From an uncultured bacterium (GTDB lineage Bacteria; Cyanobacteriota; Vampirovibrionia; Gastranaerophilales; Gastranaerophilaceae), in assembly GCA_949297715.1 (NCBI GenBank), contig CASFTJ010000003.1:1-64000 (forward strand): a DNA stretch of 64,000 nt, read 5' to 3'. The notes beneath the pieces are model-generated. The model saw only the letters and a list, made by a program, of their open reading frames with translations. It ran no database searches and was not told the origin of the DNA. Numbering within the stretch: the stretch's first letter is position 1; the number at the start of each line of letters is the position of its first letter. Shown here piece after piece: positions 1 to 45,524 of the stretch. The translations under genes and the position numbers were made by a program.

Positions 1-92
1 CTCTGTTGGTTGATCTGTTGACCTTCATATTCAGTATTTGTTTTTCTGGCCGTGAGTCCTAAGAATCTGGCCTGTGATGCTGCCATTCCCAT
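1..92 (-). CDS. MGMAASQAR-family protein, N-terminal fragment
   Basis: The first 30 codons of a gene that runs off the left edge. The start ATG is at 92, preceded by an AAAGGGA ribosome binding site. The visible protein begins MGMAASQARFLGLTARKTN and continues with polar, glutamine-rich helix. The first nine residues are identical to those of the 659-residue protein starting at 43545, which continues with LLSITSR, so the two are paralogues at least at the N-terminus. There is no Sec signal peptide. It lies downstream of the phosphorylase gene on the same strand, separated from it by a terminator. I do not recognise a function; the conserved start could be a targeting or assembly element. Confidence 0.8.
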   Translation of the reverse strand, partial: MGMAASQARFLGLTARKTNTEYEGQQINQQ

Positions 93-220
93 GACGTTTC
101 CCTTTCAATTTCGTTTCCTTGTGTCATGTGTTACGGCAATGCTATTTAAAATCTTTAATTTTTTATCCACTTTTTGTAATATTTCGTTACATTAATTGCT
201 GAAATTTAATTATAATAACA

Positions 221-9548: not shown

Positions 9549-9974
9549 ATGAGAAAAATTTTATTTTTAGTGTTTGCTTTATTATCATTGGCTTATTCGT
9601 CTTGTTTTGCGGGAGATATAAGGTACGGATACAATTCAAGGGGAGATTATGTTCCGATATCTGTTGACGGTCAGAGTGTAAACTACGGATACAATTCCCG
9701 CGGGGATTACGTGCCTATATCTGTAGGGAGTGATAGAATAAATTACGGATATAATTCCAGAGGTGACTACGTACCTACTTCAATCGGCAGTGATAAAATA
9801 GATTACGGATACAATTCCAGAGGCGACTATGTTCCGACTTCTGTTGGCGGTAATCATATCCAATACGGGTATAATCCGAAGGGGAATTATGTTCCGACAG
9901 GAATTGGAGGCCGTCAGATAAATTACGGATATAATTCAAAAGGACAGTTTGTACCTGTGGGTATAAGTAATTAA
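9549..9974 (+). CDS. Secreted protein of six tandem 20-residue repeats
   Basis: 141 residues. A Sec signal peptide (MRKILFLVFALLSLAYSSCFA) is followed directly by six repeats with the consensus I-N-Y-G-Y-N-S-R-G-D-Y-V-P-x-S-V-G-G plus two variable residues; nothing else is present. Repeats 1-4 are nearly identical in the core, and 5 and 6 have drifted (NPKGNYVP, NSKGQFVP). Only the four residues between the cores vary freely. This suggests a small repetitive beta structure or a surface or matrix polymer. I do not recognise a family. It is not clearly part of an operon, having its own likely promoter and the SRP RNA gene downstream. Confidence 0.8.
   Translation: MRKILFLVFALLSLAYSSCFAGDIRYGYNSRGDYVPISVDGQSVNYGYNSRGDYVPISVGSDRINYGYNSRGDYVPTSIGSDKIDYGYNSRGDYVPTSVGGNHIQYGYNPKGNYVPTGIGGRQINYGYNSKGQFVPVGISN
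9618..9971 (+). repeat. Six tandem 60-bp coding repeats
   Basis: Five full 60-bp units and one 54-bp unit, in frame, each coding a YGYNSRGDYVP core. Synonymous differences between units show they have been diverging under selection for the protein sequence, although units 2-4 remain close enough for slippage or recombination. Confidence 0.85.
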
Positions 9975-10387: not shown

Positions 10388-11161
10388 CTAATCAGGCAGG
10401 CATTCAAAATAACTTCTTCCGCTCCCGTCGGGGCACATATCCCTGAGTGCATACCACGCACACCCAATACCGTTTGCTTTTTGTTTTGAGGTAAAGCTGC
10501 AAGGATTTCCTTTGCGTTCCTTCAAGAATTCTTCCCCGTACTCTCCATCCTCTATTTCTTCTTCTGTAAAATTTTGAGGCTTATTGGCAAAAGATATAGT
10601 ATCATTATTTTTGTCAATAGTAAAAATAAAAATGTCATGTCCTAATTGATTAGGGCCTTTTTGTCCATTGACATCTACGTTTATATAGAATTTATATTCA
10701 ATGATATTCATGTTAAGGAAGGAACCGTCCGGCATAATATTTGTTTCATAGATTCCCTGCCCTATTCCGGCTAAAGAGCTTATATCTGTTATCTGTAATC
10801 CGTTATATGTTTTTATAATTTCATTTGTGCGGTTTATGTTGTAATGCCTCATGTATGTAGATTTATTTCCTGCTATGTTTACAAAGTTTTGGTAAAAGCC
10901 ATCATAGCATTCTTTAGAGGCATAATATCCGTCAGTTTCATTATACTGTATGCAGAAATCGACAAATTTGTCACTTCCAAGTTGAACTTTTGTTTTCATT
11001 ATTGCTTGTGAGATGACTGATACCGATTTTTTAAACTGGGTTTCAAGGACTTTTCTCCGAAATTTTCCGAGCATTGAAGGAAAAGTCATTGTAGCAACTA
11101 TTCCGATAATCCCCAGTGTTATGAGAACTTCTGCCATTGTAAAAGCTTTTATATGTTTCAT
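10388..11161 (-). CDS. Prepilin-like protein 1
   Basis: 257 residues. The N-terminus KHIKAFTMAEVLITLGIIGIV is a class III prepilin signal: a short basic leader, cleavage expected before FTMAE, Glu at mature position 5, then the hydrophobic spine helix. The globular part contains the phrase GQKGPNQLGHDIFIFTID and ends with a four-Cys pattern (NPCSF, GIGCAWYA, MCPDG, FECLP), probably two disulfides. Prepilin 2 at 53306 has the same GP-N-GHDIFMF phrase and the same Cys pattern. GAGGGAG precedes the ATG. No pilus ATPase or prepilin peptidase gene is in the window. It is divergent from an XRE-type HTH gene. Confidence 0.9.
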   Translation of the reverse strand: MKHIKAFTMAEVLITLGIIGIVATMTFPSMLGKFRRKVLETQFKKSVSVISQAIMKTKVQLGSDKFVDFCIQYNETDGYYASKECYDGFYQNFVNIAGNKSTYMRHYNINRTNEIIKTYNGLQITDISSLAGIGQGIYETNIMPDGSFLNMNIIEYKFYINVDVNGQKGPNQLGHDIFIFTIDKNNDTISFANKPQNFTEEEIEDGEYGEEFLKERKGNPCSFTSKQKANGIGCAWYALRDMCPDGSGRSYFECLPD

Positions 11162-12631: not shown

Positions 12632-14410
12632 ATGAGTAGAGATTTTAATTATAAAGATTATGTAAATATGCTTCGATTTCAAATTGGCGGAGGCTGTCCT
12701 GACTATTTTGATGAAGCAATTGAAAAATATGTTCGCAAGCAGGTTTATGATAAGACCACAGATGTTGCAAAAAAGCTTTATCAGAATCCATCTGTTAAAA
12801 TTGAAGCTTGTGAAATAATTACCAAAACGATAGCAGAATGGACTTTTTATAAAATAATAGACTTAATATATGGAGATATTCCGATTGAGTTTCATGACGC
12901 AATAATTAACAAAATAAACAATTCTATATTTGAATATCTTGTAGAGCAGAATAAAGTTGAAGAGTTAACGGAAGAAAACATAAAAATGAGCAGTTGTGTT
13001 CATGCCGTAACAGAAATTGTAAAATCGACTTACCGTGCAGAACTAAGCAAATTATATTCGGACAAAAAGATTGACAGAGCTATGTATACTTTTGCTCTTG
13101 CGCAGTCATACAAAGAGGTAGAACAAAATAATTTGCAGAAAGAACTTTCAAAAGAAGTGAAGAAGGACATTGTTTCCTGCTTAGAGCGAAAAAGCGTATT
13201 TTTAAATAACGTAAAAAAATGGATTAAGTTGCATAGTTTGAGGTTTATATTTTATTGTTTATCATTTTTGCCGTTAGGGTATTTAGCCGTAATTTCCGTA
13301 AAATTAACAGAACCTAATCCGTTGTATTTGAAAATCGTTTTAGTCTTTTATTTAGGGTTGATGATAGCAGCTCTGGCGGATACCTTATCAATAATAATGA
13401 ATTATGATTATTCTTTTTTAGGATGGTTAGTCAGTTCTTTAAAGTCAAATAAAAAAGAAAATGAAGATGAAATTGACGAAGTTTATTTAAACGGTCCAAA
13501 CGAAATGTACCAAAGGCTTGGTGTAGATGTTCTATCAATAAGATTCGGAACTGATTTTTTGGACTTGGCAGATCCTGATGCGGATAATTGTATTCTTCCG
13601 ATGATATCAAAGTTAAGAACAGAATTAACTGATACTCTCGGGTATATAATTCCTAGTATAAGATGTATGGATGATACATCTTATAAGCCAAATGAGTTTG
13701 GAATTTATGTAAGAAATGTAAGGCGAGTTAAAATTTTTGCAGACTTTGGGCGTTCTAATGTTGAGATTACAGAACTTATAAGAAAAAATTTAAGGGCATG
13801 TTGCATAAAATATGCTAACGAGATAATAACTCGTACCGATATTTTAAAGATTATGACACTTGTAGAGAGCGAAAATCCAACACTTGTTAATGATTTAATT
13901 CCGACAATGATTTCAGCTGTAGATTTAAGAAGAATATTTGTGGCGCTTGTACAGGAAGAAATACCTATTAAAGATGTAATTTTAATTTTCGAAAGGTTAT
14001 GTGAATTTGCAAGGCTAAATACGAGTCCGAATGTATTGGTAGAGAGGCTGAGAGCCGAGATGGCGCCTCAGATTTGCGATAAATACTCAATCAAAACCGA
14101 TAACAAAACAGTTTTGTATACAGCATTATTAAGTCCCGAGCTTGAGAATAAACTTCTTAATTCAGTTAGTGTGACGGATTTTTGCAGTTTTTTCAAGCTT
14201 GAAGCTTATGAGCTCGAGAATGTTGTAACTTCCGTTTTAGAGAAACTTAATAAACTTGATGGATACAGAAACGATGTGGTTCTTTTGGTTTCTCCCAAAA
14301 TAAGAAAACCTCTGTTTGATATTTTGTCAAAGCATATAGATAATATAAGAGTGATGTCATTTGGCGAATTATCTCAAGATATTGAAGTAGAAGAATTGTG
14401 CGTGATTTAA
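12632..14410 (+). CDS. FlhA-like export-gate cytoplasmic domain on a two-helix anchor
   Basis: 592 residues. Residues 1-200 are helical and unrecognised. Two membrane helices lie near 204-223 and 232-256. Residues about 290-592 read like the cytoplasmic domain of FlhA/SctV (FHIPEP): a start like LGVDVLSIRFGTDFLDLAD, then SKLRTELTDTLGYIIPSIR, KPNEFGIYVRNV, the stretch TRTDILKIMTLVESENPTLV / DLIPTMISAVDLRRIFVALV / EEIPIKDVILIFE, and the close LLVSPKIRKPLFDILSKH / RVMSFGEL. True FlhA has eight N-terminal helices and about 690 residues; here that membrane half is missing. No other flagellar or type III gene is nearby. It precedes a two-component system. The similarity is read by eye, and I rate it strong over the last 300 residues. 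Confidence 0.8.
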   Translation: MSRDFNYKDYVNMLRFQIGGGCPDYFDEAIEKYVRKQVYDKTTDVAKKLYQNPSVKIEACEIITKTIAEWTFYKIIDLIYGDIPIEFHDAIINKINNSIFEYLVEQNKVEELTEENIKMSSCVHAVTEIVKSTYRAELSKLYSDKKIDRAMYTFALAQSYKEVEQNNLQKELSKEVKKDIVSCLERKSVFLNNVKKWIKLHSLRFIFYCLSFLPLGYLAVISVKLTEPNPLYLKIVLVFYLGLMIAALADTLSIIMNYDYSFLGWLVSSLKSNKKENEDEIDEVYLNGPNEMYQRLGVDVLSIRFGTDFLDLADPDADNCILPMISKLRTELTDTLGYIIPSIRCMDDTSYKPNEFGIYVRNVRRVKIFADFGRSNVEITELIRKNLRACCIKYANEIITRTDILKIMTLVESENPTLVNDLIPTMISAVDLRRIFVALVQEEIPIKDVILIFERLCEFARLNTSPNVLVERLRAEMAPQICDKYSIKTDNKTVLYTALLSPELENKLLNSVSVTDFCSFFKLEAYELENVVTSVLEKLNKLDGYRNDVVLLVSPKIRKPLFDILSKHIDNIRVMSFGELSQDIEVEELCVI

Positions 14411-43443: not shown

Positions 43444-43544
43444 CATTTTGTAATAAATAGCTGATAATTATTAAAGAAACTGCCATTTAGAGCCGATACC
43501 AAAGATAAGAATAGTACTAACTTGAAAGGAAAAGGCGTAAAACT

Positions 43545-45524
43545 ATGGGAATGGCAGCATCACAAGCCAGATTACTATCAATAACCTCCCGTATGTCAGA
43601 TAATGAATTACGGGCGCAGTTGATTAACAATGCCAAAATACGCCTTACAGAAGATTCATCTAAGGCAAGTGAAAAATATATTAATGCCTTAAACCAGACT
43701 CAGTTGATGATGTCAAATAAAGATTTTCAGGGGAATGATCTATATCAGCAATTGACCTATAATAATTTGACAGCATACAGTTCCTACAATAATCAATACG
43801 GCTTAATTAACAAATCCGGCGAAATGGTTGTATCCGAACTTGAAGCAGCAAAATATGAACAAGCACTTGCAGCAGCGGAAGGCAATGATGATACAGATGC
43901 TTTAACAGAATTTTTAAAACTTTACGGTTTGGAAAAAGATGACACTTCATATTGGGAAAGTAATGGGCTTAGTGAAGAAATGAGAGCCCGTTTTGAAGGT
44001 GATATAGACTATGATGCAGATGGAAACAGAATTTCCGGTTATCACTATGGATATGATATGTCAAAAACATCAACAGAAATGGGTGTCTATGAAAGATTGT
44101 TAGATGATTACACAAAGGCTGATTCTGCATATTCTAGTGCAGTAATAAAAGAGATGAAAAACTATCTTTATGGGTATAAGCCGCAAGGCTTTTCTTCTGC
44201 TTATGAAGATATGTACAACGATGTCGTAGGTGGCAGTAAAACTGATTCTATGGCTGGTTCTCAAGATGCATTGAATTATTTGAAAAAGATGTTTGGAGAG
44301 TTAGTCGGTGATGATTACATAATTGAGGAAAAAATCAACCCCGATGGCACAGTAGAACCATCTATATTTTGTGAAAACATGGATTTTCTGTTAAATGATA
44401 CAATACAATTTAACGGAAGTGGTGCTGTTATAACAAACCAAATTGGAATGACAGGATCAGATCCTGGACCTTATGATATTGGTGGTATATTTACCATTAC
44501 AAAAGATACAAATAGCGGTGCATTAACAGCAACAGGTGTATCAGAAGATGGTGGTGGAACCTATTCTTGTAGTGCTGTTAGCGGTACAGATCCTGAATAT
44601 ACGTTCACATATACCTATACAAAAGAAGAAGATGACGGAACTACTTCATCAAAAACCGGCACTTGCACATTTAATCTTGATACAAATGTAGCAATAACAG
44701 AAGAAAATGCATCTGTTGAGGATGTTGCAGGGCAGATTAAATATATATATAAATATTTTAATCAAAATGTACTTTCACAAATTGACAGAGATAAGTTTGG
44801 AAGTGCAGCACCAACTGAAAAAGCTGCTTATGAAGCAGCCGCAAAACAATTATCAATGTTCATATTTGGTCAGGATATAGGTTCTGATAATTATGAATAT
44901 CTTGATGATATGTATTGGATTATCAATGAAAGCGGTATTCCGACTACCAATTTGGATAGTTCAACATCAGTAACAATAGATCAAGTTATAGGTGGAGTCT
45001 CTCAACCTGTTCAATATCAAACAAACTTTGAGGCAGTGTTAGATGTATTTTTGATAGAAGAAATGATAGCCCAATATGGAGCACCGAAATATACTTGGGT
45101 TGACAAAAACAATCCTGATGAAAATGCAGAAGCAAAAGCACAATGGTATACAAATATTTTTAATAAGATGAATGAAGACGGATACCAAAAAATATCAGCA
45201 GACCTTGCCAAAAGTCCAGATTGGATTCAGTATGCATTTGAAAGCGGATTATTAAGCATGATCCAGGTAGATGACGAATCACAATGGGTATCTACAATGT
45301 ATTCAAATTGTAGTGATATTACAGAAGATACTATAGATTTAATGATTACTCAGGCAGAGGCTGAATATACTCGTGAAACTAACAAAATTCAAGCAAAAGA
45401 TCAACTTTATGATTTAGAGCTTAAGAACATTGATACAGAGCATGAAGCACTTCAAACAGAATATGATTCAATTAAGTCTGCTCTGGATAAAAACGTAGAA
45501 CGTCATTTTAAATACTTCAGCTAA
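43545..45524 (+). CDS. MGMAASQAR-family protein, full length
   Basis: 659 residues, no signal peptide or membrane segment. Begins MGMAASQARLLSITSRMSDN, sharing its first nine residues with the fragment at 1-92. The first ~120 residues are helical (ELRAQLINNAKIRLTEDSSK); the centre is acidic and includes a Thr/Gly-rich beta region (GGIFTITKDTNSGALTATG); the last 60 residues are a coiled coil (AEYTRETNKIQAKDQLYDLE). Helical ends around a variable centre recall flagellin-like or filament proteins and export substrates, but I find no recognised family. Single gene with GAAAGGAAAAGGCG before the ATG. Confidence 0.8.
   Translation: MGMAASQARLLSITSRMSDNELRAQLINNAKIRLTEDSSKASEKYINALNQTQLMMSNKDFQGNDLYQQLTYNNLTAYSSYNNQYGLINKSGEMVVSELEAAKYEQALAAAEGNDDTDALTEFLKLYGLEKDDTSYWESNGLSEEMRARFEGDIDYDADGNRISGYHYGYDMSKTSTEMGVYERLLDDYTKADSAYSSAVIKEMKNYLYGYKPQGFSSAYEDMYNDVVGGSKTDSMAGSQDALNYLKKMFGELVGDDYIIEEKINPDGTVEPSIFCENMDFLLNDTIQFNGSGAVITNQIGMTGSDPGPYDIGGIFTITKDTNSGALTATGVSEDGGGTYSCSAVSGTDPEYTFTYTYTKEEDDGTTSSKTGTCTFNLDTNVAITEENASVEDVAGQIKYIYKYFNQNVLSQIDRDKFGSAAPTEKAAYEAAAKQLSMFIFGQDIGSDNYEYLDDMYWIINESGIPTTNLDSSTSVTIDQVIGGVSQPVQYQTNFEAVLDVFLIEEMIAQYGAPKYTWVDKNNPDENAEAKAQWYTNIFNKMNEDGYQKISADLAKSPDWIQYAFESGLLSMIQVDDESQWVSTMYSNCSDITEDTIDLMITQAEAEYTRETNKIQAKDQLYDLELKNIDTEHEALQTEYDSIKSALDKNVERHFKYFS

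What the first reader, a model, noticed from the sequence alone, without database searches (positions are those of the whole stretch)
1..92. Shared MGMAASQAR start in two otherwise long proteins
The fragment at 1-92 and the 659-residue protein at 43545 share nine identical first residues, then a similar L-x-x-T-x-R. Perfect identity limited to the extreme N-terminus suggests a functional element such as an export or docking signal, in proteins lacking a Sec signal.
Basis: partly seen in the sequence, partly recalled or inferred. Interest (0 to 1): 0.6.

Follow-up and report, generated by a model that had tools for sequence, protein, structure and literature searches.

The report
Substrates of a second flagellum-type secretion machine
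The shared MGMAASQAR start marks a large, previously unnamed protein family that every examined member of this order of gut bacteria (Gastranaerophilales) carries, and that is probably exported by a second, flagellin-free, flagellum-type secretion machine which earlier papers took for leftovers of a lost flagellum.

Summary
The fragment at 1-92 (minus strand) is cut by the contig end. It and the 659-aa protein are two of 13 loci in this genome with the same N-terminus. Complete members (333-659 aa here) share both a ~50-aa N-terminal helix and a ~60-aa C-terminal helix around a variable middle, the layout of flagellin-type axial proteins.

Most members (11/13 here, 54/67 in relatives) have a sigma-28 promoter 24-60 bp before ATG, against 2/251 and 3/447 control genes. 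The genome encodes sigma-28 FliA but no flagellin. It keeps a nearly complete flagellum-type export apparatus (FlhA, FlhB, FliE/F/H/I/J/O/P/Q/R, rod proteins). Its FlhA belongs to a class separate from flagellar FlhA. Flagellated relatives carry both classes; relatives without flagellin carry only this one. Family and FlhA occur in 192/192 Gastranaerophilales genomes, and the family in none elsewhere in the phylum sample. One subfamily member sits beside the fliE-flhA cluster in several genera.

Best reading: sigma-28-dependent late substrates (filament-like or secreted surface proteins) of a second, non-motility flagellum-type T3SS. Export itself is inferred.

The parts
1..92 (-). 5' end of a family gene of the 'ARKTN' subfamily (MGMAASQARFLGLTARKTNTEYEGQQINQQ...), truncated by the contig end
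   Evidence: window start = C3:1
132..158 (-). sigma-28-type promoter of that gene (TTAAAGATTTTAAATAGCATTGCCGT), 41 bp before its ATG
43470..43496 (+). sigma-28-type promoter (TTAAAGAAACTGCCATTTAGAGCCGA), 49 bp before the ATG
43545..45524 (+). complete family member, 659 aa (P0001)
43548..43694 (+). conserved N-terminal helix (residues 2-50)
45336..45518 (+). conserved C-terminal helix (residues 598-658)
12632..14410 (+). 592-aa FlhA-like protein: FlhA cytoplasmic domain behind an FDYxxF-type N-terminal domain, membrane half missing.

Best explanation
The two genes belong to an order-specific family of sigma-28-controlled late export substrates of a second, flagellin-free, flagellum-type type III secretion system (T3SS) in Gastranaerophilales. 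Shown: the family, its two conserved ends, the promoters, the FlhA class distinct from flagellar FlhA, the order-wide co-occurrence, and linkage of one subfamily to the T3SS core cluster. Inferred: FliA (sigma-28) switches the genes on; the N-terminal helix (MGxAASQARxLxxTxR...) is the export signal recognised by the FlhA/FlhB/FliI machine; once outside, the N- and C-terminal helices pair as the D0/D1 helices of flagellins and hook-associated proteins do, so that the subunits stack on or at the tip of the rod/hook-like axis and display variable middle domains. About ten paralogues per genome would give alternative surface subunits. The step from exported to polymerised is the least certain; free secreted surface proteins are the main variant.
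For: 13 loci in one genome, E 1.5e-15 to 0.014. Paired-end conservation with a variable middle: 53% / 20% / 45% identity among paralogues, 71% / 15-20% / 61% in a 35-sequence alignment. AlphaFold models put one long helix at each end: 659-aa model with mean pLDDT 86.7, helices 2-50 and 598-658; 377-aa relative with helices 2-49 and 316-376. Sigma-28 promoter TAAAG-N15/16-CCG in 11/13 own and 54/67 relatives' genes against 2/251 and 3/447 controls, Fisher p 7e-16 and 1e-56, consensus tTAAAGwww-N12-GCCGwwA. FliA/WhiG sigma at 243 bits, cutoff 189.6. Export apparatus in the same genome: FlhA, FliE/FliF/FliH, FliI, FlhB/FliO/FliR, rod and FliJ/FliK-like proteins, FliP. No flagellin. Order-wide: family 192/192, FlhA 192/192, flagellin 74/192. 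The ~850-890-bit FlhA class is in 70/74 flagellin-positive and 0/118 flagellin-negative genomes (counted). Two FlhA clades, 100/100 support, 79-96% identity within FlhA2 and ~37% to the flagellar class. Conserved neighbourhood family member - 285-aa gene - 108-aa mini member - ... - fliE-fliF-X-fliH-flhA in the own genome, G044, G001, G018, G025, G059, G061 and L136; a 169-aa member beside fliE in G186. VIA-align hits of the 659-aa model are rich in flagellins, FlgL, FlgK and distal rod, e.g. 9n8h Z 9.2, 2.0 A over 106 residues.
Against: No sequence relationship to flagellin, FlgL, rod or needle proteins was found. Foldseek E-values are above 0.04. Z of 7-9 for paired long helices is within the range expected of unrelated coiled coils, and SMC/MukB and other coiled coils score as high. 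Most family genes are scattered, not next to T3SS genes. In six flagellated genomes examined (G174, G132, G107, G080, G175, G113) and in G057 no family gene lies near the fliE-flhA cluster. Export was not measured. The C-ring, motor and L/P ring genes were not searched for in this genome.
Confidence: 0.72

Rival explanations
1. The proteins are exported by the second system but do not polymerise: they are free secreted effectors or cell-surface adhesins that share an export and chaperone-binding signal, like the sigma-28-dependent Fed proteins of Campylobacter.
For: Long, highly variable middles in proteins of about 320-840 aa; many dispersed paralogues; sigma-28 control without neighbouring T3SS genes. 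Fed proteins are a described case of sigma-28-dependent non-flagellar substrates (PMC5223770).
Against: A shared signal alone would not need a conserved C-terminal ~60-aa helix, or minimal members of 108 and 169 aa consisting mainly of the two ends.
Confidence: 0.33
2. The export genes are the decaying remnant of a lost flagellum, as earlier papers suggested, and the family is a leftover sigma-28 regulon without present function.
For: Flagellin is absent here. Previous authors read partial gene sets as flagellar loss (PMC4040986; PMC3787301).
Against: The FlhA kept is not the flagellar class. Flagellated relatives carry both, and the retained one is 79-96% identical across genera. Family genes are intact, multi-copy and present in 192/192 genomes.
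Confidence: 0.06
3. The proteins are cytoplasmic coiled-coil scaffolds regulated by sigma-28, not export substrates.
For: Two long helices at the ends are also typical of cytoplasmic coiled coils; structure hits include SMC and MukB. No export data.
Against: Linkage to fliE-flhA and to a rod/hook-like gene, universal co-occurrence with a T3SS gate, and the variable-middle layout of exposed proteins.
Confidence: 0.13

Closest known systems
Flagellin / FlgL / FlgK (flagellar filament and hook-associated axial proteins)
   Same: Conserved helical N- and C-termini, variable middle, sigma-28 promoter, multi-copy, export through a flagellum-type apparatus (inferred here)
   Different: No detectable sequence homology; no PF00669 in this genome; co-exists with true flagellins in 74 relatives; N-terminal motif MGxAASQARxLxxTxR is family-specific
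Campylobacter jejuni Fed proteins (sigma-28-dependent substrates of the flagellar T3SS, PMC5223770)
   Same: Sigma-28-dependent non-flagellin proteins thought to leave through a flagellar T3SS
   Different: Feds use the motility flagellum; here a second apparatus serves genomes without flagellin. No sequence comparison was made
Injectisome / non-flagellar T3SS (Sct systems, PMC3459982)
   Same: T3SS without a motility filament
   Different: This system keeps the flagellar rod genes fliE, flgB and flgC, which Abby and Rocha use as flagellum-specific markers, and its FlhA scores higher as FlhA (694 bits) than as SctV (583), below both cutoffs
Buchnera flagellar basal bodies without filaments (PMC8109811, abstract seen)
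   Same: Flagellum-type export apparatus kept by a host-associated bacterium without a filament
   Different: In Buchnera it is the reduced ancestral flagellum; here the system is a separate class that coexists with flagella in relatives and has its own linked protein family

Membership tests
Flagellin (PF00669/PF00700) | Match to the Flagellin_N profile | tested here: not met
   No hit in the whole genome; no flagellar Pfam hit in 35 family members
Flagellin (PF00669/PF00700) | Conserved N- and C-terminal helices around a variable middle | tested here: met
Flagellin (PF00669/PF00700) | D0/D1 fold | tested here: inconclusive
   VIA Z 7-9 to flagellins/FlgL over ~105 residues, but unrelated coiled coils score as high
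Flagellin (PF00669/PF00700) | Sigma-28-type promoter | tested here: met
   11/13 and 54/67 genes against under 1% of controls
Flagellin (PF00669/PF00700) | Polymerises into an extracellular filament | not testable with these tools
   needs purified protein or cryo-tomography
Flagellum-type T3SS (host system) | Export gate and apparatus FlhA, FlhB, FliP/Q/R, FliH/I | tested here: met
   FlhA, FlhB, FliH, FliI, FliP and FliR by profile; FliQ only by position between FliP and FliR
Flagellum-type T3SS (host system) | Rod genes fliE, flgB, flgC | tested here: met
   FliE; FlgB- and FlgC-like by weak PF00460 and by Flg_bbr_C
Flagellum-type T3SS (host system) | NCBIfam FlhA equivalog cut-off (772 bits) | tested here: not met
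   694 bits; the class is divergent
Motility flagellum | Flagellin filament | tested here: not met
Motility flagellum | Motor and C-ring (MotAB, FliG/M/N), L/P rings | not tested
Injectisome (NF-T3SS) | Absence of fliE/flgB/flgC | tested here: not met
   the rod genes are present
Injectisome (NF-T3SS) | SctC secretin in the cluster, SctV above cutoff | tested here: inconclusive
   SctV 583 of 692 bits; the genome was not searched for a secretin

The most novel reading that the evidence does not exclude
Gastranaerophilales build a dedicated non-motility surface filament or secretion nanomachine, present in every member of the order and separate from the flagellum, whose subunits are a new protein family unrelated in sequence to flagellins, with many interchangeable outer domains per cell.
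Probability: 0.38. Interest if true: 0.87.

Novelty: new variant of a known kind. Interest (0 to 1): 0.7.

Why it matters
Earlier papers treat the partial flagellar gene sets of non-motile gut Melainabacteria as flagella being lost. The data here indicate that the retained genes are a second, intact, highly conserved flagellum-type secretion system present across the order, and give it a candidate substrate family of about 2-20 proteins per genome. That makes testable how common, uncultured gut bacteria export proteins to their surroundings or hosts, and adds a flagellum-class T3SS without flagellin to the few known exceptions. No description of such a system was found in the papers searched, which do not cover all journals.

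Tried and rejected
Chance match of two N-termini: rejected (E = 1.3e-4 within the genome, 13 loci, 504 relatives). A biologically truncated gene at 1-92: rejected, it is the contig end. Known domains in the family: no Pfam or NCBIfam match above curated cutoff. PDB sequence search: nothing below E 0.15. Descent from the system's own rod or FliE proteins: the N- and C-terminal profiles do not hit them convincingly. Profile-profile test of the family against the 108-aa mini protein was negative; homology is instead supported by intermediates in G001, G018 and G061 (E 1.4e-8 to 6.6e-6). The search for the missing downstream halves of the truncated copies at the contig ends fetched found none. Linkage of family genes to T3SS genes in the 67 relatives' loci (L136, L137) is by itself no more than chance (my estimate ~3%); the claim rests on the conserved neighbourhood. 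First control set for promoters contained family genes and was redone.

Full report
What was checked. Window 92..1 on the minus strand encodes MGMAASQARFLGLTARKTNTEYEGQQINQQ, and 43545-45524 encodes a 659-aa protein starting MGMAASQARLLSITSRMSDNELRAQ. The shared start is real and extends beyond nine residues: the 31-residue query finds the second gene at E = 1.3e-4 and 55% identity in a search of the whole genome, together with eleven further loci. The fragment is short because position 1 of the window is the first base of contig C3. A copy with almost the same promoter and start is cut at the end of contig C8, and three more are cut at the ends of C9, C3 and C4, which suggests that near-identical 5' ends broke the assembly (inference).

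The family. Eight complete members in this genome are 333-659 aa. They share an N-terminal ~50 residues (53% mean identity) and a C-terminal ~60 residues (45%) around a middle at 20%. In 35 relatives the figures are 71%, 15-20% in the central part and 61%. Invariant in a 33-sequence N-terminal alignment are M1 G2 Q7 A8 L11 T14 R16 E21 L34. No Pfam, NCBIfam or PDB sequence family covers it. AlphaFold2 models of the 659-aa protein (mean pLDDT 86.7) and of a 377-aa relative (75.0) place one long helix at each end. VIA-align lists many flagellins, FlgL, FlgK and distal rod proteins for the 659-aa model (Z 4-9, mostly 2-2.6 A over ~100 residues), but unrelated coiled coils score as high, so this is only suggestive.

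Taxonomy and distribution. The closest named relatives are Gastranaerophilales / Melainabacteria. The family N-terminus is found in 192 of 192 genomes sampled from the order, 1-20 copies each. In a phylum-wide sample of 292 genomes it occurs in 131, and every matching genome is in the order.

Regulation. A sigma-28-type site, consensus tTAAAGwww-N12-GCCGwwA, lies 24-60 bp before the ATG of 11/13 own genes and 54/67 genes of relatives, against 2/251 and 3/447 control genes from the same stretches (Fisher p 7e-16 and 1e-56; sites listed). Related sequences are not independent, so the second p-value is inflated; the own-genome test is less affected. Both genes of the finding have the site. The genome encodes a FliA/WhiG sigma factor above its curated cutoff.

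The secretion system. The genome, 99.6% complete, has no Flagellin_N match. It has FliE-FliF-X(353 aa)-FliH-FlhA on contig C2, a FliI-type ATPase on C1, FliO-FliP-FliQ-FliR on C4 (FliQ by position), two FlgF/G-like proteins, FlgB and FlgC on C14, and FliJ-like, FliK-like, a hook/rod-like 310-aa protein and FlhB on C16. FlhA scores 694 bits as FlhA (cutoff 772) and 583 as SctV (cutoff 692); the ATPase is likewise below the FliI and SctN equivalog cutoffs.

Two FlhA classes. Across the order, flagellin occurs in 74 of 192 genomes. Counting, the high-scoring FlhA class (about 850-890 bits, one truncated at 817) is the best hit in 70 of the 74 flagellin-positive and in none of the 118 flagellin-negative genomes; nearly all of the latter (115) have a full-length FlhA of the lower-scoring class, judged by best E-value. 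Flagellated genomes fetched at both loci (G174, G132, G107, G175, G113) carry both. A tree separates the classes at 100/100 support (E. coli FlhA falls on the flagellar side, but its branch is long). The second class is 79-96% identical across the order and ~37% identical to the flagellar class. A decaying remnant would not be expected to show this conservation.

Linkage. The arrangement family member - 285-aa gene - ~100-aa gene - 108-aa mini member, lying within about 2-9 kb of fliE-fliF-X-fliH-flhA2, is found in the own genome, G044, G001, G018, G025, G059, G061 and L136. The member there is of the same ARKTN subfamily as the fragment at 1-92. In G186 a 169-aa member lies beside fliE. In six flagellated genomes and in G057 none lies near the cluster. 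The mini proteins of G001, G018 and G061 match the family N-terminal profile at E 1.4e-8 to 6.6e-6.

Literature. Di Rienzi et al. [quoted passage not shown] Soo et al. reported complete flagellar gene sets in three of nine Gastranaerophilales genomes and inferred losses (PMC4040986). Di Rienzi's list of shared flagellar genes contains two flhA genes in ACD20, one in a run flgG-flgG-flgC-fliF-fliH-flhA-fliI-flgE, which by gene order looks like the second system (inference). No paper found describes a second T3SS in this order.

Interpretation. Shown: family, paired conserved ends, promoters, apparatus, co-occurrence, two FlhA classes, linkage. Inferred: control by FliA, export through the second apparatus, N-terminal helix as signal, pairing of end helices in an extracellular assembly. 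I give about 0.9 to the family being tied to this system, 0.8 to export by it, and 0.4-0.45 to a filament-like assembly rather than free secreted proteins.

Limits. The C-ring, motor and L/P ring genes were not searched for in this genome, the genomes are draft assemblies, and the function of the variable middles is unknown.

Noticed in passing
window 12632-14410 (+): FlhA cytoplasmic domain fused behind an FDYxxF-type domain similar to the FliG-position protein of the fliE-flhA cluster (25% over 171 aa), membrane half missing. A second soluble FlhA-like gene lies at C1:272608-274083. In L112 a similar gene neighbours a family member.
   Followed up: partly
G000 C2:20268-21329 and relatives: A 325-358-aa protein with no Pfam match occupies the FliG position between FliF and FliH in every second-system cluster examined.
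   Followed up: partly
G000 C13:25423-27132 (-) = L015:7424-9133; G000 C2:45327-45971 (-): Two non-family genes (569 aa with a weak EF-hand match; 214 aa) also carry sigma-28-type promoters: possible further members of the regulon.
   Followed up: partly
window 9549-9974 (+): 141-aa protein with a signal-peptide-like start and repeated GYNSRGDYVPxSV-type units of about 19 aa.
   Followed up: no
window 10388-11161 (-) and many other loci of this genome: Numerous type IV pilin-like proteins beginning with ...FTMAEVLITLGIIGIVAAMT...
   Followed up: no
G112 C4:134802-135417; G033 C4:112394-113017 (L197:5697-9698); G068 C6:36011-36623: Divergent pairs of nearly identical family genes only ~260 bp apart, head to head, in genus g6: possible recent duplication or recombination.
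   Followed up: no
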